Source: Candidatus Izemoplasma sp. (GTDB taxonomy: Bacteria > Bacillota_I > Bacilli_A > Izemoplasmatales > Izemoplasmataceae). From it: a stretch of DNA of 64,000 nt. The position numbers and the translations under genes are program-made. Shown here piece by piece: positions 31,775-54,139 of the stretch. Every line of letters begins with the position of its first letter. The first letter of the stretch is position 1. Location of the stretch: NCBI GenBank assembly GCA_007132465.1, contig SLOP01000021.1:1-64000 (forward strand), in the 5' to 3' direction. Under the pieces are notes generated by a model, which was not told where the DNA came from, ran no database searches, and saw nothing but the letters and a program-made list of their open reading frames with translations.

Positions 31775-32107
31775 CTAGAATGTGTCGATGACGTCCGCGG
31801 CGTCAATCCACGTTCCGCCGACACGGAGGCGCCGCGCCGCGAAATCGACCTCGGAGAGGGGGCCCTCGAGGGTTCTTTCGGTGCCCGAATCGTGCACGAC
31901 AAGGCGCAGGGAGCACTCGTTGTGCAAGGCGGTCTCAAACGCGCGCTGCAAGACTTCCAGTCGGTCTTCGCTGAGCGTGGGTTTGGGTTGTCGCAAGCGT
32001 TTTTCGCGCAACGTGCGAAGGCTTTTTCCTTGTTCGGGAAGCGACTGAAAAGGCAGCCATTTGAGCATTTTACGATCGTGATAGACGGCGCTATTCACGG
32101 TGACCAC
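31775..32107 (-). CDS. YolD-like protein
   Basis: A 110-residue YolD-family protein. The diagnostic segment is MLKWLPFQSLPEQGKSL near residue 14, followed by KPTLSEDRLEVLQRAF. In Bacillus such proteins are encoded with Y-family UV-repair polymerases and probably act with them. Here the gene overlaps the 3' end of the polymerase gene by 17 bases, the same partnership. The start is GTG at 32107 with a weak RBS; GTG at 32098 is an alternative. Confidence 0.85.
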   Translation of the reverse strand: MVTVNSAVYHDRKMLKWLPFQSLPEQGKSLRTLREKRLRQPKPTLSEDRLEVLQRAFETALHNECSLRLVVHDSGTERTLEGPLSEVDFAARRLRVGGTWIDAADVIDTF

Positions 32108-33359
32108 CGATTAACCCGCTGCGCTCCAAATAGGTCCCGCTTGTTTGGTGACTGGAAAGTCGAGCCACCGCGTTCTTTCCAAACCGGCGTCGAACCTCGT
32201 CAATCGTACGCCACAGATGATTGCGCGACGTCGTCCGCTCAGGCGTCTCAAAAAGTGTGGTTTGCATGCCGGCCGTGGCGTCGACCAACCGCGTTGCCCG
32301 AATAAACACTTGACGGATAGGCGCGTCATCGCCATGCGCGGCGAAAAGCGCACGCACCGCCGCCAGCAAAGCGTCGTTATCGTCGGTGGCGACATCGAGC
32401 GTGCGCTGATGGGAAAACCCGCCGCCGACGGATTTGCTGTAACCGATGCCAAGGTGCACGGTCTTGGCGTGCTTGCGAACAAAACGAAGCCTTTCAGCGA
32501 CCTCATCGCACATCTCGATGAAAATCTGTTCGATGTCCGTGACGTCATAATCACGAAACAGCGTTTGCCCGAGACCGACGCTTTTCATCGGCGCTAAATC
32601 AAGGTGCTTGTCGCGGATGCGCGAGGTGTCGATGCCGTGGGCATGGAAATACAGTTCATCGCCGAGGATGCCGAAGCGTTTGTGCAACACGCGACGATCG
32701 GCACGTGCCACGTCCCCGAGCGTGTAAAGGTTCATCGCTTCAAGGCGGCGCTCCATACGCGCGCCGATGCCCCAAATCTTCGACAGCGGGCGAATCGGCC
32801 ATAGTGTTGACTCGACATCATCGTATCGCAAGGTCGCAAACCCGTCTTTCGATTGCTTGCTGAAAAGATCGAGAGCAAGCTTCGACAACAGCATATTATC
32901 GCCGATGCCACAGCTCGCCGGCACACCGGTTTCTTCATGCACCGCATGAACAATCTGCCGTGCTAACGTCTCGACGTCGGTGCCGTAGTAAGCAAGGTAG
33001 TTAGTGACATCCAAAAACGCTTCATCGATGCTGTAGACGTGCAGGTCTTCTTCGGACACAAAGCGTAAATATATATCGACGACGCGAATTGCCACCTCGA
33101 CGTACGCGCGCATTTGGGGACGCGCAACCATCATCGTCGAGGTATCGCCGACTTCAAACAAGCGGCATCGCGAGGGCATCCCGCGTTGTTTTAAATAGGG
33201 CGACACGGCCAGGACGATTGATCCGCCACCACGGCCTTCATCGGCTACAATCAACGGCGTTTTAAAAGGGTCAAGGCCGCGCAAAGCACATTCAACCGAC
33301 GCAAAAAAACTTTTGAGATCAATACACAGCACTTGCCGTTTGATTTTCAGGTGGTCCAC
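32091..33359 (-). CDS. Y-family DNA polymerase (UvrX/YqjW-like)
   Basis: A 422-residue translesion DNA polymerase of the UmuC/DinB superfamily. Catalytic motifs are CIDLKSFFASVEC with D14, and YSIDEAFLDVT with the paired acidic residues. The helix-hairpin-helix region IWGIGARMERRLEA and the little-finger domain (about 245-360) follow. Length matches the UvrX type. The GTG start at 33359 is chosen for the excellent AAGGAGG eight bases upstream; the longer frame runs through the promoter. It forms a two-gene unit with the YolD-like gene. Confidence 0.93.
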   Translation of the reverse strand: MDHLKIKRQVLCIDLKSFFASVECALRGLDPFKTPLIVADEGRGGGSIVLAVSPYLKQRGMPSRCRLFEVGDTSTMMVARPQMRAYVEVAIRVVDIYLRFVSEEDLHVYSIDEAFLDVTNYLAYYGTDVETLARQIVHAVHEETGVPASCGIGDNMLLSKLALDLFSKQSKDGFATLRYDDVESTLWPIRPLSKIWGIGARMERRLEAMNLYTLGDVARADRRVLHKRFGILGDELYFHAHGIDTSRIRDKHLDLAPMKSVGLGQTLFRDYDVTDIEQIFIEMCDEVAERLRFVRKHAKTVHLGIGYSKSVGGGFSHQRTLDVATDDNDALLAAVRALFAAHGDDAPIRQVFIRATRLVDATAGMQTTLFETPERTTSRNHLWRTIDEVRRRFGKNAVARLSSHQTSGTYLERSGLIGGHRE

Positions 33360-33389
33360 GAAAAATCCCTCCTTGGTGATGGTGTTATC

Positions 33390-33411
33390 AGTATACGGAA
33401 GAATTTTCCGT
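33390..33411 (-). promoter_or_regulatory. Polymerase promoter region with inverted repeat, candidate damage-response operator
   Basis: A TATACT -10 (33390-33395, - strand) abuts the perfect inverted repeat ACGGAA-N5-TTCCGT (33395-33411), which fills the spacer. It is not the Bacillus LexA consensus (GAAC-N4-GTTC) nor the E. coli one. The position fits a repressor site. Confidence 0.5.
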
Positions 33412-48494: not shown

Positions 48495-49568
48495 TTATAC
48501 TTTCAGGGTGATTTGCTCATAGATTGAGGACTTCTTCTGTGATTTATACAGCTTCATCCATTTGGCGCTGCGACCTTTGCCAAGGGGGCGGATGCGTTTT
48601 TCATCGCGCAGTCGGCGCAAGGTGCGGTTGATGGTTGAATCGGAAATCGTTGGATGGGCGCGACGGATGTCGTCTTTGCTGAAGACGTCGTCGAGCTTGT
48701 TGATGGTGTTTTCGATGTAATCCGATTTATTGGTTTCTTGATCGAAGGTGTAGTTTCTGAGCAACTCGTGAAGGCCTTGGTAACTTTCGAGCAGTTTTTG
48801 CAAGATGAAACGGTGCAAGGTCATGACGTTGGCGAGGCCTTCTTCCCAGTTGCGGCTGGCTTCTTGGGTGTGTTTGTGCAGTTTATCGTGGTGTTTGTAA
48901 AGCAGTTCGAAGAAACTGGCGAGATGCAAGCTCTTCACCCCGTGGCTAAGCAGCAACAAATAAAGCGTCAGAAGTCCGATGACGTCGTTATGGACGACAA
49001 ATGGCTTAAGGTTGATAAAATCAACATAGAAATTGACGCAAAGGAAGATGGGTTCGAAATCGCTTTTGCTCAGTAAATGGCGAAAATCGTCGATGAGCGT
49101 TTCAAGGGCTTCGCGCTTTGTTGGATGATGGCTTGAAAGCAGATTGGTGGTTTTCTCGCGTTTGCGCTCGGTTTTCGCATGCCGCAACCGTGTTTCAGGT
49201 TCCACGTCGTGATACAAAAACCGTAAGAGGTCACGCATCTCCGTTTCGCGCAACTCGAAGGTGTCGGTGTCATTGTGTATTTTCTCAAAGGCACGCTTGA
49301 CGTTTTTCACGAACCGCTCGGTTTTGTTTTTGGCGGCGGCGTCTTTGACGACGAGACTTTTGAAGCGGGCCTCAGGAAGGTCCACGCCGAAAAGCCGTAT
49401 CGCAAAGCCGGTGTCGAGGCGAATGGTTTCGCCGACGAGCACGTCGAAGTCTTTCGACACGGTTTTGAGCATGGTGTCGTTACGCCCGATGAACGGGTAC
49501 AGGTGGGTGTAAAGTTTGACAATGTCGTTGGGCATGACGACGCGATCAATGTTTTTCAGACAATACAT
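48495..49568 (-). CDS. Fic-fold protein with degenerate active site and C-terminal winged helix
   Basis: A 357-residue protein. Residues about 165-215 align with the Fic core: VNFYVDFINLKPF then IGLLTLYLLLLSHG. The catalytic motif HPFxxGNGRxG is K188-P-F-V-V-H-N-D-V-I-G198, so catalytic His, both glycines and the Arg are replaced. The C-terminal about 70 residues form a winged-helix-like domain (HPTISDSTINRTLRRLRDE). AMPylation is therefore unlikely; a regulatory or structural role is inferred. RBS GAGGTGA. It lies between parC and argS in an operon of essential genes. Confidence 0.75.
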   Translation of the reverse strand: MYCLKNIDRVVMPNDIVKLYTHLYPFIGRNDTMLKTVSKDFDVLVGETIRLDTGFAIRLFGVDLPEARFKSLVVKDAAAKNKTERFVKNVKRAFEKIHNDTDTFELRETEMRDLLRFLYHDVEPETRLRHAKTERKREKTTNLLSSHHPTKREALETLIDDFRHLLSKSDFEPIFLCVNFYVDFINLKPFVVHNDVIGLLTLYLLLLSHGVKSLHLASFFELLYKHHDKLHKHTQEASRNWEEGLANVMTLHRFILQKLLESYQGLHELLRNYTFDQETNKSDYIENTINKLDDVFSKDDIRRAHPTISDSTINRTLRRLRDEKRIRPLGKGRSAKWMKLYKSQKKSSIYEQITLKV

Positions 49569-49580
49569 GCGCTCACCTCG

Positions 49581-52112
49581 TTATTCGTCGTCAAAAAGCG
49601 TCGGTTGGTGGGGCGCTTCGCGTTTGATTGGGCGGTAATCGGAGAGTGGCGGGGTGTCGTTGCGGGTTTCGGCGTCGACGTCAACTTTGCCAAGCACCAT
49701 GTGGCGTGGTGTGCCGGCGCTTGCCTTGACAAAGCGTTTGCCGGTTTCGGCGGCGTTGCGCTTCAGGTCAAAGGCGTTCACTTTGACGTGGCTTTTGTTG
49801 GTGATGACATGCAGTGTGGCGCGGTGTTTATAGGAGATGGCGTCAAGCATGGTCAAGTCGCGCACGAGGTATGGCTTGGTTTTGACCTGCCTGTATAGCG
49901 GCACGCCCTTTAAGGCGCGGCGCTTTTTCTCGATGGTGTCGATATCTATGCGTTTTAGGGTGCCGCGATTTGTCAGCACCAAGAGGTCACAACCCGGTTC
50001 AAGCACAATCGATGCGGCCAGCGTGTGTCGCGCTGCAAGCGACATCGCTTTGACGCCTTTGGCGTCGCGGCTAGTGATGGGGATTTCGTCGAGATCGAAA
50101 CGCAAGGCGGCACCGTGGGTGGCGGCGACGAGCACTTCTTTGTCGAGTTGATTGGTTTCGGTAACATGAACGACGGCGTCGCCTTCGGTGAGGGTGAGCG
50201 CTTTAAGAATTTTATTGTAGCGCAACGCTTTGAACTCAGCGACGGGTGTCAGTTTGACCAGGTTTTGCTTGGTCGTGAACAAGTAGTGTCGACCGTTATT
50301 GAAATCGCTGACGCGGGAGATGAATAAAATCTCTTCTTTGAGTTCGATGCCAAGGAGGGCGTTGATGTGCGTGCCGAGTTCTTTCCAACGGCTCTCTGGG
50401 ATTTTAAAGACCGGCAGGTAAAGGTAGTTTCCGGCGGCCGTAAACAGCAGCAACGTATCGAGGGTTGACACTTCGTCGACGAACAAGAAGGCATCTTGGT
50501 CTTTCATGTTAGCTGATTCGGTCGCTTTGTATGACCGAATTGAGGCTTGCCGGATGTAGCCTTCTTTGGTGATGCCGACCATGACTTGTTCGGATTGGAT
50601 GAGTTCTTGTTCTTGGAACGTGATTTTTTCAATCGTCTCCTCGATTTCACTGCGACGGACGGTGTCCGCGTCGCGAATCGCTTGACGCAGCTCTTTTTTG
50701 ATGACTTTCTTAAGCGTGTCTTCGTTATGCAGGATGTCGTTGAGTTCATCGATCCAGCGTTTTAGTTCGCGTTCTTCCTTTGTGAGCGCGGTCATGTCGG
50801 TGTTTGACAAGCGATAGAGTTGCAGCGTTAAGATGGCTTCCGCCTGTTCTTCACTGAAGGCAAACGTTTTGATGAGTTTGCTTTTGGCGTCGGCCTTGCC
50901 TTTAGAAGCGCGAATGAGCGCGACGACATCGTCGACGACATCGAGCATGCGAATGATGCCTTCAACGATGTGCAAGCGCTTCTGAGCGCGGCGAAGGTCG
51001 TGGTTTGAGCGGTTGGTGACAACTTCTTTTTGGTGATAAATGTAGGAGTCGAATATCGTTAAAATGCCCATCTGTTCTGGGCGTTTGTTGTTGATGGCGA
51101 CCATGTTGTAGTTAAACGACTTGGTCAGGTCGGTTTTACGGTGCAGGAAGTTAAGGACGGCTTCAGAATCAAAGCCTTTTTTGATGTCGACCACGACGCG
51201 GAGGCCTTCTTTATCGCTTTCGTCGCGAACTTCTTGGATGCCGTCAACTTTTTTGCCGAGGCGGATTTCGTCAATTTTACGGACGAGCGAGGCTTTGTTG
51301 ACTTCATAAGGAATTTCTGTGATGACGATGCGTCCTTCTTCAATGCGGGTTTTGGATTTGATGATGATGCGCCCGCGACCGGTTTCAAACGCTTCTTTGA
51401 TGCCTTCTTCGCCTTGGACGATGGCGCCGGTTGGAAAATCGGGTCCTTTGATGATTTTCAGCAAATCCTCGACCGTGCAGTCGGGGTGATCGAGGCGTTT
51501 GATGACGCCCTTGACAATTTCTTCGAGGTTGTGCGGAGGGATTTCCGTGGCATAACCCGCCGAAATACCAGAGGCCCCGTTGACGAGCAAGTTCGGGAAG
51601 CGAGCCGGCAAGACGATCGGCTCGTATTCCTCATCGTCGAAGTTGGGGATGAAGTTGATGGTGCGTTTGTCGATGTCGCGAAGCAAGTGTTCGGCCATCT
51701 CGGTCATCCGCGCTTCGGTGTATCGCATCGCTGCAGCGGGATCGCCATCGATGGAACCGTTGTTACCATGCATGTCGATGAGCGGGATGCGCATTTTAAA
51801 GTCTTGGCTTAAGCGAACCATCGCCTCATAGACGCTGGAATCGCCATGCGGATGGTATTTACCGATGACATCGCCCACGATGCGCGCCGATTTTTTATAC
51901 GGTTTATCGTGGGCCATGCCAAGCATGTGCATCGCGTAAAGAATCCGGCGTTGCACCGGTTTAAGCCCGTCGCGAACGTCGGGCAAAGCACGGTCTTGAA
52001 TGATGTATTTCGAGTAGCGACCGAAGCGCTCGCCAACGATGTCTTCGAGGTTTTCTTCGAGGATGCGGCCTTCGACGAAAGCTTCGATGGTTTTTTTGAT
52101 GTCTTGCGCCAT
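49581..52112 (-). CDS. parC: DNA topoisomerase IV subunit A
   Basis: An 843-residue type IIA topoisomerase subunit that decatenates chromosomes. The DNA-cleaving tyrosine is Y131 ([11 protein letters not shown]). The quinolone-resistance region reads [14 protein letters not shown] with S92 and E96, the susceptible residues at E. coli ParC positions 80 and 84. The C-terminal beta-propeller lacks the GyrA-box QRRGGKG, favouring ParC over GyrA. It starts six bases after parE. Confidence 0.93.
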
Positions 52113-52118
52113 GGGGGT

Positions 52119-54056
52119 CTACTCCTTTATCTCAAAGTTGTCTTCGTTGGTGAAGATGACGTTCGATTCAATCCAATCGCGACGTGGTTCAACCGAGTCA
52201 CCCATGAGGATGCGAATGCGTTTTTCCGTGTCCGCGAGGTCGTCGATTTTGACTTTGACGAGCGTGCGGGTGTCTGGGCTCATGGTCGTTTCGTAAAGCT
52301 GATCGGCATTCATTTCGCCAAGCCCTTTAAACCGCTGGACGCCGGCGGATTTGAAATTTTCCAGCAAGATTTTCAGTTCGTCGTCGTTCCAGGCGTAGGT
52401 CACGACGTCTTTGCGGTTTTTCTTCACGGTGACTTTGTATAAGGGCGGTAAGGCTATATAGACGCGTCCTGCTTCGACGAGTTGTCGCATGTAACGGAAG
52501 AAAAAGGTTAAGAGCAGCACCTGGATGTGGGCGCCATCGGTGTCGGCGTCGGTCATGATGATGATTTTTTTGTAGTTACAGGATTCGATGTCGAAATCGG
52601 ACCCGAACCCGGCGCCGATGGTGTGGATGATGGTGTTGATCTCTTCGTTTTTCATCACGTCTTCAATGCGTGCTTTTTCGGTGTTAATAACCTTGCCGCG
52701 AAGCGGTAAGATTGCTTGATAACGGCGATCGCGCCCTTGTTTGGCCGAGCCGCCTGCCGAGTCACCCTCGACGAGGTACAGTTCGGTGTTTGAGCGGTCT
52801 TTGCTGGTGGCGGGTGCGAGTTTGCCCGAAAGAATCGGTTCTTTTTTGCGGCTTCGCTTTTCTAAACGCGCTTCTTCACGGGCTTTACGCGCCGCTTCGC
52901 GAACCGACTGGGCCTTCATCGCTCGTTCGATGAGCGTGGCTGCAAGCGTCGGATTTTCTTCAAAGAAATACGTCATGCGCTCACTGACGACCGTTTCCAC
53001 CGCCGTGCGGGCTTCGCTGGTGCCGAGTTTATTTTTGGTTTGGCCCTCAAATTGCAACAAAAACTCAGGAATTCGTATCGACACGATGGCCGATAATCCC
53101 TCGCGAATGTCAGCGCCTTCAAGCTTTTTGGTTTTATCCTTTAAGAGCCCTGTGCGAAGGGCGTATTCGTTGAAAATCTTTGTGAAAGCCGCTTTGAACC
53201 CAGTTTCGTGGGTGCCTCCATCACGCGTGCGGACGTTGTTGACAAAGGAATAGAGCTGATCGGTGTAGGACTTGGTGAATTGAAAGGCGACTTCAACTTC
53301 GATTTGTTGGAATTCACCTTCAAAAAAGACGGTTTGGTGTATTTCTTTTTTCGTCTTGTTTAGGTGTTCGATGTAGGAAAGAATGCCATCGTTGTACTGG
53401 TAGGTTTCCTTTTGTTTCGAACGCTCGTCGTTGAGCGTGACTTTAACCCCTTTAATTAAAAACGCACTTTCACGGAGGCGCTCGGAAAGCGTTTGGTAGT
53501 TAAACACGGTGGATGAAAAAATGTCTGAATCGGGTTTGAACCAGACGGTCGTGCCGTTGCGTTTTCCGCCTTCTACCTCTTCAAGACGCGAAATGTCGCG
53601 GCCGCCGTTGTTGAACACCATGCGGTATGTTTTTCCGTTGCGGGTGACGGTGACGTCCAAGAACTCTGATAAGGCATTGACAACGCTGGCGCCGACCCCG
53701 TGCAACCCACCGGAAACTTTGTAGCCGCCGGCCTGGCCGAACTTCCCACCGGCATGCAGTTTTGTGTAGATGATTTCGATGGCGGTTTTGCCTGATTGAT
53801 GGTCTTCAACGGGGACGCCTCGTCCAAAGTCTTGAACGACGACACTGTTGTCTTCTTTGATGGTAACGATGATCTCATCGCCGTAACCGGCAAGCACTTC
53901 ATCAATGGCGTTGTCAACGATTTCCCAGACGAGGTGGTGTAGACCGGTGGCGTCGGTTGAACCGATGTACATGCCGGGACGCTTGCGAACGGCGTCGAGT
54001 TCTTCGAGTACTTGAATCGAGTCGGCATTATAGTTGTCAAATGCATCTGTCGTCAT
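52119..54056 (-). CDS. parE: DNA topoisomerase IV subunit B
   Basis: A 645-residue ATPase subunit. GHKL motifs are EIVDNAIDEVLAG, DFGRGVPV and GGLHGVGASVVNAL; the TOPRIM domain has VEGDSAGGSAKQGRDR and MTDADTDGAHI. Pairing with parC argues for ParE over GyrB. ATG 54056 is preferred because AGAAGGA has proper spacing; GTG 54062 is too close. Confidence 0.94.
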   Translation of the reverse strand: MTTDAFDNYNADSIQVLEELDAVRKRPGMYIGSTDATGLHHLVWEIVDNAIDEVLAGYGDEIIVTIKEDNSVVVQDFGRGVPVEDHQSGKTAIEIIYTKLHAGGKFGQAGGYKVSGGLHGVGASVVNALSEFLDVTVTRNGKTYRMVFNNGGRDISRLEEVEGGKRNGTTVWFKPDSDIFSSTVFNYQTLSERLRESAFLIKGVKVTLNDERSKQKETYQYNDGILSYIEHLNKTKKEIHQTVFFEGEFQQIEVEVAFQFTKSYTDQLYSFVNNVRTRDGGTHETGFKAAFTKIFNEYALRTGLLKDKTKKLEGADIREGLSAIVSIRIPEFLLQFEGQTKNKLGTSEARTAVETVVSERMTYFFEENPTLAATLIERAMKAQSVREAARKAREEARLEKRSRKKEPILSGKLAPATSKDRSNTELYLVEGDSAGGSAKQGRDRRYQAILPLRGKVINTEKARIEDVMKNEEINTIIHTIGAGFGSDFDIESCNYKKIIIMTDADTDGAHIQVLLLTFFFRYMRQLVEAGRVYIALPPLYKVTVKKNRKDVVTYAWNDDELKILLENFKSAGVQRFKGLGEMNADQLYETTMSPDTRTLVKVKIDDLADTEKRIRILMGDSVEPRRDWIESNVIFTNEDNFEIKE

Positions 54057-54089
54057 GCTCACACGTCCTTCTGTCTAACTCGTTAGTTT

Positions 54090-54118
54090 ATTATATCAGA
54101 ATAACCAAGCGTTTTAAA
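54090..54118 (-). promoter_or_regulatory. Promoter of parE-parC
   Basis: On the - strand: TTTAAA, a 17-bp spacer, TATAAT. A short inverted repeat CTAAC/GTTAG lies just downstream. Confidence 0.6.
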
Positions 54119-54139
54119 GTGTATTTTTGCCTTGTGGTG

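What the first reader, a model, noticed from the sequence alone, without database searches (positions are those of the whole stretch)
48495..49568. Pseudo-Fic protein inside an essential-gene operon
The Fic core is recognisable, but HPFxxGNGRxG is K-P-F-V-V-H-N-D-V-I-G, losing catalytic His and phosphate-binding residues, and a winged-helix domain follows. It sits between parC and argS. Fic proteins can AMPylate topoisomerase IV and gyrase (FicT toxins), so a dead Fic next to parE-parC is suggestive of a binding or regulatory role retained after loss of catalysis.
Basis: partly seen in the sequence, partly recalled or inferred. Interest (0 to 1): 0.66.

Follow-up and report, generated by a model that had tools for sequence, protein, structure and literature searches.

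The report
Dead Fic protein in topoisomerase operon
A protein descended from toxin-like AMP-transferring (Fic) enzymes has lost its catalytic site but kept, and strongly conserved, its DNA-binding-type domain; it has long been inherited beside the genes of the DNA-untangling enzyme topoisomerase IV, and its tail looks like a hook for the DNA-copying machinery, which suggests an unstudied core factor of chromosome replication.

Summary
Window 48495-49568, minus strand, encodes a 357-aa protein with a Fic fold (AlphaFold pLDDT 85; best PDB fold matches all Fic) and a C-terminal winged helix, in a parE-parC-fic-argS-apt-relA run. It is no local oddity: orthologues occur in 82 of 90 genomes of the order and in ten families of the class. 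All 100 aligned orthologues lack the GNGR loop and the inhibitory glutamate, 98 the catalytic histidine; they form one vertically inherited clade. ParE-ParC lies just upstream, or one gene away, in eight of ten families; argS is a neighbour only in the window's own family. Selection is strong (dN/dS 0.05) and conservation is inverted: canonical Fic paralogues conserve the catalytic loop (85%) over the winged helix (38%); here it is 36% and 62%. New here: after the winged helix most orthologues carry a tail, lacking in canonical Fics, with a DnaN-clamp-binding-type motif (QLSLF, QLDLKL; QITLKV in the window), 67 of 98 against 3 expected. ParC ends QPTLF plus DDE, PolC QMTLEL. Best reading: a pseudo-Fic repurposed as a clamp-tethered winged-helix accessory of topoisomerase IV. 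Clamp, DNA and ParE/ParC binding are inferred, not shown.

The parts
48495..49568 (-). pseudo-Fic/winged-helix protein, 357 aa (P0001)
49386..49403 (-). residues 56-61, place of the Fic inhibitory motif SxxxE(G/N); here A-I-R-L-F-G, Glu replaced by Phe
   Evidence: alignment with canonical paralogues
48834..49325 (-). Fic core, residues 82-245
48975..49007 (-). degenerate Fic loop, residues 188-198 KPFVVHNDVIG
48552..48692 (-). winged helix, residues 293-339, the most conserved part of the family
48498..48515 (-). C-terminal clamp-binding-like hexapeptide, residues 352-357 QITLKV (QLDLKL/QLNLKL in the family, QLSLF/QLDIF in Acholeplasmataceae)
49581..52112 (-). ParC, immediately upstream in the operon
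49593..49607 (-). ParC C-terminal QPTLF (QxxLF clamp-binding-like) motif
52119..54062 (-). ParE, first gene of the operon
54090..54122 (-). parE promoter element ACACTTTAAA...TGATATAAT, conserved in the family; the only match to its pattern in the genome
46852..48483 (-). ArgS, downstream neighbour in this family only

Best explanation
The gene belongs to an old pseudoenzyme family derived from a Fic protein with an N-terminal inhibitory helix and a C-terminal winged helix. AMP-transferase chemistry and its self-inhibition were lost, most simply once, in a common ancestor (inferred from sequence and tree). The protein then became a core, probably co-transcribed companion of topoisomerase IV (shown: synteny, near-universal presence in the order, purifying selection). 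The most likely mechanism is inferred: the winged helix contacts DNA, the C-terminal QLxLxL/QLxLF peptide docks on the DnaN sliding clamp, and the Fic fold serves as a scaffold, possibly still contacting ParE or ParC. This would hold topoisomerase IV on newly replicated DNA behind the fork, or tune its activity there. ParC carries a QxxLF tail of its own, so the two products of the operon would meet on the same hub.
For: Fic homology by profile and fold. 100 of 100 orthologues lack the GNGR loop and the inhibitory Glu, 98 of 100 lack the His, while 12 of 13 paralogues in the same class keep HPFxxGNGR. One clade, 100% support. ParE-ParC just upstream or within one gene in f1, f2, f3, f5, f10, f12, f16 and f18, whereas the downstream genes differ. 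Winged-helix identity 62% against 36% in the Fic loop, the reverse of canonical paralogues (38%, 85%). C-terminal clamp-binding-like motif in 67 of 98 tails, shuffled mean 3.3, maximum 9; canonical paralogues end at or soon after the wing without the motif. The consensus QL[S/D]LF, more generally QxxLF, and the hexapeptide QLSLPL of Hda come from PMC12309361 and PMC9690074. The same genome's PolC ends QMTLEL, and PolC of relatives ends in QMSLF, QLSLF or QLNLF motifs. Of 59 ORFs in the window only pseudo-Fic and ParC end in such a motif. DnaN is present in the genome.
Against: No binding was measured or modelled as a complex. The tail motif is missing in f3, f7, f10 and f18, three of which keep the parC linkage, and f22 keeps a tail without the linkage, so tail and linkage are not strictly coupled. 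The window's own tail (QITLKV) is weaker than the family consensus. The own GyrA also ends in PKLTLFDDED, so LF-containing tails are not unique to this operon. The tail has low pLDDT. Parts of the operon are ordinary housekeeping genes, so linkage alone does not prove a shared function.
Confidence: 0.42

Rival explanations
1. A transcription factor that autoregulates the parE-parC operon, like the Fic-HTH protein CccR but without catalysis. The Fic part is only a dimerisation scaffold and the C-terminal peptide is incidental.
For: CccR shows that a Fic-HTH protein can repress its own promoter through its HTH (PMC9755527). The winged helix is the conserved part. The parE promoter of the window's family carries a conserved ACACTAYAAA element upstream of an extended -10, matched once in the genome.
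Against: The recognition helix is nearly invariant across ten families, yet the promoter element is not shared outside the window's family and no common operator was found upstream of parE in seven other families. In f7 and f22 the gene no longer sits with parEC.
Confidence: 0.27
2. A FicT-like binder of topoisomerase IV: the dead Fic fold holds ParE at the old AMPylation site and acts as a reversible inhibitor, chaperone or activator, without need of clamp or DNA.
For: Canonical Fic proteins modify ParE and GyrB (PMC7479194, title and abstract). The gene is linked to parE-parC in eight families.
Against: The Fic half is the fast-evolving part (28-36% identity by segment) and residues 136-145 are disordered in the model. 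This does not explain the near-invariant winged helix or the tail.
Confidence: 0.17
3. A housekeeping protein with another function (for example an RNA- or nucleotide-binding role) that stays in the operon only because the gene order is old.
For: Flanking genes such as argS, apt, relA and recJ are ordinary, and linkage is lost in f7 and f22.
Against: ParEC is the one neighbour shared across families while the other neighbours changed.
Confidence: 0.11
4. A decaying pseudogene of a Fic toxin.
For: Catalytic and inhibitory motifs are lost.
Against: Near-universal in the order, intact, dN/dS 0.05, one clade conserved across ten families.
Confidence: 0.01

Closest known systems
Fic family protein of Bordetella bronchiseptica, PDB 8uqu
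   Same: Same fold and same full-length sequence architecture including the GKGRxAKW wing; the only PDB sequence hit of the profile, TM 0.89 by target length
   Different: Keeps HPFxxGNGR and the inhibitory motif (alignments); the chain ends about two residues after the matched wing, without the tail
CccR of Yersinia pseudotuberculosis (PMC9755527)
   Same: N-terminal FIC, C-terminal HTH; similar length and domain order; DNA binding through the HTH demonstrated there
   Different: CccR is catalytically active and secreted and modifies FtsZ; the pseudo-Fic is dead by sequence, core-genomic, in the parEC operon and carries a clamp-like tail
Fic-1 and FicT type toxins acting on GyrB and ParE (PMC7479194, PMC13327609)
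   Same: Fic fold; connection with type II topoisomerases
   Different: Those AMPylate and Fic-1 comes with a separate antitoxin; here no catalysis is expected, the former inhibitory helix lacks its Glu, and no antitoxin gene is adjacent
Clamp-binding proteins with short motif (PolC QLSLF, Hda QLSLPL; PMC12309361)
   Same: Short Q-L-x-L-F / Q-L-x-L-x-L peptide near a terminus, as in PolC of the same genomes
   Different: Not found reported for Fic proteins or ParC in the papers searched here; binding not tested

Membership tests
Fic/FIDO superfamily (fold and homology) | Fic fold, detectable homology to solved Fic proteins | tested here: met
   hmmsearch 8uqu 3.8e-25; all Foldseek hits with E up to 0.1 are Fic
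Fic/FIDO superfamily (fold and homology) | Pfam Fic gathering score | tested here: not met
   18.5 bits against a cut-off of 24; 7 of 16 orthologues match at E up to 0.05
Catalytic Fic AMP-transferases | HPFx[D/E]GN[G/K]R with catalytic His | tested here: not met
   KPFVVHNDVIG; 98 of 100 orthologues lack the His and 100 of 100 the GNGR loop
Catalytic Fic AMP-transferases | AMPylation activity | not testable with these tools
   needs purified protein
Class II Fic (inhibitory helix N-terminal to the core) | [S/T]xxxE[G/N] inhibitory motif before the core | tested here: not met
   position 60 is never E or D in 100 orthologues; E, D or N in 13 of 13 paralogues
FicTA toxin-antitoxin modules | adjacent small antitoxin gene | tested here: not met
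   neighbours are parC (12 bp) and argS (11 bp), no room for a small gene between
FicT acting on topoisomerase IV | binds or modifies ParE | not testable with these tools
   only genomic linkage shown
Fic-HTH regulators such as CccR | C-terminal HTH/winged helix | tested here: met
Fic-HTH regulators such as CccR | operator at own promoter | tested here: inconclusive
   ACACTAYAAA element confined to the window's family, no shared operator across families
Clamp-binding proteins | QL[S/D]LF, QxxLF or QLxLxL motif in a flexible terminus | tested here: met
   67 of 98 tails against 3.3 in shuffles; low-confidence, probably flexible tail in the model; the window tail QITLKV is a weak form
Clamp-binding proteins | binding to DnaN | not tested
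   no complex prediction or assay available

The most novel reading that the evidence does not exclude
A previously undescribed core replication factor of Izemoplasmatales, Acholeplasmatales and relatives: a catalytically dead Fic protein that became a clamp-bound, DNA-binding recruitment subunit of topoisomerase IV, so that both ParC and its partner are tethered to the sliding clamp, in place of the MukB-ParC type of recruitment known from E. coli.
Probability: 0.25. Interest if true: 0.85.

Novelty: new variant of a known kind. Interest (0 to 1): 0.64.

Why it matters
Fic proteins are studied as enzymes, toxins and effectors. A whole clade that lost catalysis and self-inhibition, and was then kept as a near-universal gene of the topoisomerase IV operon, would show a toxin-like fold domesticated into core chromosome biology. 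A near-invariant winged helix combined with a clamp-binding-type tail gives a concrete, testable route by which topoisomerase IV could be coupled to the replication fork in this group; in E. coli topoisomerase IV is placed by other proteins (MukBEF, MatP; PMC3950513, PMC4738335). The window protein falls below the Pfam threshold, so the family is probably annotated as hypothetical in many genomes.

Tried and rejected
A common operator upstream of parE across families: only A/T-rich strings and -10-type promoter sequences (such as TGATATAAT) are shared; ACACTAYAAA is confined to the window's family. Inverted repeat around the parE promoter: explained by two divergent extended -10 boxes. Covariation between PolC tail and pseudo-Fic tail across families: not seen, since Acholeplasmataceae, f16 and f22 PolC lost the Gln while their pseudo-Fic kept QLSLF-type tails; the match is one of motif class, not of paired changes. 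ArgS as functional partner: rejected, adjacent only in f1. An active Fic in the same genome of which this could be a decoy: none found with the Pfam Fic model. Two f1 loci counted as not linked are an artefact of stop-to-stop ORF ends; one search shows ParC adjacent in every f1 locus.

Full report
WHAT IS THERE. The minus-strand ORF at 48495-49568 encodes 357 aa, 12 bp downstream of the parC stop and 11 bp upstream of argS, in a run parE-parC-ORF-argS-apt-relA-dtd. Pfam gives Fic below threshold (18.5 bits, E 0.0037). A single-sequence PDB search gives 8uqu, a Fido/Fic protein, at 1.4e-15 over residues 54-339, and a profile of 16 orthologues gives 3.8e-25 over 20-333. The AF2 model has pLDDT 85.4, with very low confidence only at 136-145 and in the last 12 residues. 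Foldseek places it among Fic proteins, 8uqu first with TM 0.89 by target length, then 4rgl, 8cil, SoFic and FICD. The C-terminal part is a winged helix (residues 293-339).

DEAD IN EVERY ORTHOLOGUE. Orthologues were found in 45 of 49 genomes of the family (20 of 20 good-quality ones), 82 of 90 of the order, and in seven further families of the class; named members are Acholeplasma granularum, Haploplasma modicum and Izimaplasma MAGs. (Family labels f1, f2 ... are those of the genome tool: f1 is the window's own, f1-f3 its order; f12 holds Acholeplasma.) In 100 aligned orthologues none has a GNGR loop and none has E or D at the inhibitory position (60 in the window protein). Two of 100 keep a His at 188 without the rest. 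The 13 paralogues of the same class that the search also returned keep an E, D or N at the inhibitory position, and 12 of 13 keep HPFxxGNGR. The Asn of the loop is kept in 93% of the thinned set and is probably structural. A maximum-likelihood tree gives one clade separated from the canonical paralogues by a branch of 1.65 changes per column with 100/100 support. Seven of the ten families each form a single clade; f22 needs two changes, and f1 and f12 are interleaved with the named records that belong to them. This fits one loss of catalysis followed by vertical inheritance. dN/dS against the 89%-identical orthologue is 0.05, lower than parC (0.07) or argS (0.10).

NEIGHBOURHOOD. ParC lies immediately upstream in f1, f3, f18 and most f5, within 700 bp in most f10, and one gene away in f2 (a GLUG-motif protein) and in f12 and f16 (a uridine-kinase-like protein). 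Only f7 and f22 have lost the linkage, and f22 keeps the uridine-kinase-like neighbour. Two f1 cases scored as unlinked come from stop-to-stop ORF ends; one search shows the ParC. What follows the gene varies: argS, nadC then recJ or argS, a PHP/HisJ-type phosphoesterase, tsf, a UvrD-like protein. The shared neighbour is therefore topoisomerase IV.

CONSERVATION IS INVERTED. In 74 thinned orthologues mean pairwise identity is 28-36% through the N-terminal and Fic parts and 62% in the winged helix. In eight thinned canonical paralogues it is 85% in the Fic loop and 38% in the winged helix. Nine of the twelve fully invariant positions lie in the winged helix (F296, P306, S309, T312, I313, L317, G332, R333, W337), with K281 just before it. 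This is a sequence result: selection moved from the catalytic centre to the winged helix.

A TAIL THAT CANONICAL FICS LACK. After the wing most orthologues have about 16-25 residues ending in or near Q-[LIM]-x-[LIF]-F or Q-[LIM]-x-L-x-[LVI]: QLDLKL, QLNLKL, QITLKV (window) in f1; QLNLDL, QMKLNL in f2; QMKLDI in f5; QLSLF, QLDIF, QLTLF in f12 and f16; QMSLF, QVSLF in f22. A regular expression for these finds 67 of 98 tails, shuffled tails 3.3 on average and 9 at most. Related sequences are not independent, but the fixed positions persist while the others change across deeply separated families. f3, f7, f10 and f18 lack it. The bacterial clamp-binding motif is QL[S/D]LF, more generally QxxLF, with QLSLPL in Hda, often at the C-terminus (PMC12309361, PMC9690074). 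In the same genomes PolC, the established clamp partner, ends QMTLEL (own genome) or carries QLNLF, QMSLF, QLSLF or QISLF at its end; in f12, f16 and f22 its Gln is lost. ParC ends with QPTLF in the window and QxTLF, QLELF or RLDLF elsewhere. Of 59 window ORFs only these two neighbours end in such a motif. A caution: the own GyrA ends PKLTLFDDED.

MECHANISM. Shown: fold (predicted), loss of catalytic and inhibitory residues, strong selection, operon linkage, conserved winged helix, statistically enriched tail motif. Inferred: winged helix binds DNA; tail binds DnaN; the Fic scaffold contacts ParE or ParC or dimerises. Together these make a clamp-tethered accessory of topoisomerase IV the best-supported reading (0.42). 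An autoregulator in the manner of CccR (PMC9755527) is the main rival. It is weakened because the recognition helix is near-invariant over ten families while no operator upstream of parE is shared; the ACACTAYAAA element (54090-54122 in the window) is confined to the window's family.

COMPARISON AND NOVELTY. By homology it is a Fic-superfamily member; by defining residues it is not a Fic AMP-transferase nor a class II Fic, and by neighbourhood not a FicTA module. Papers searched describe Fic inhibition of gyrase and topoisomerase IV by AMPylation, possibly inactive Fic/Doc clades (PMC4454073) and a Fic-HTH autoregulator, but nothing was found on this family, on ParC clamp tails or on Fic proteins with clamp motifs. 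That covers open-licence full text only. I rate it a new variant of a known kind.

Noticed in passing
49593-49607 (-) and L161 (own GyrA): ParC ends QPTLFDDE; ParC of relatives ends QxTLF, QLELF or RLDLF, and own GyrA ends PKLTLFDDED: type II topoisomerases of this group seem to carry clamp-binding-like tails.
   Followed up: partly
54090-54122 (-): parE promoter with a conserved ACACTAYAAA-type element upstream of an extended -10, seen in nearly all f1 genomes examined; its pattern occurs once in the genome.
   Followed up: partly
L210 (own PolC) and L222, L229-L232, L236: PolC of the window genome ends QMTLEL instead of QxxLF, and PolC of Acholeplasmataceae, f16 and f22 lost the Gln (xxGLF-type ends).
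   Followed up: partly
L101, L102, L116-L118, L104, L105, L107: A uridine-kinase-like protein of about 550 aa (with a ThrRS-like N-terminal match) lies between parC and the pseudo-Fic in Acholeplasmataceae and f16, and before it in f22.
   Followed up: no
L051-L066: In family f2 a 420-aa protein with a GLUG motif lies between parC and the pseudo-Fic.
   Followed up: no
L079, L086; G062:C91, G074:C18, G215:C20: Several canonical Fic paralogues of the class were reported with one stop inside the match, so some may be recent pseudogenes.
   Followed up: no
about 32000-33400 (-): A second Y-family polymerase-like protein (IMS domain, 469 aa) with an internal QTTLF motif.
   Followed up: no
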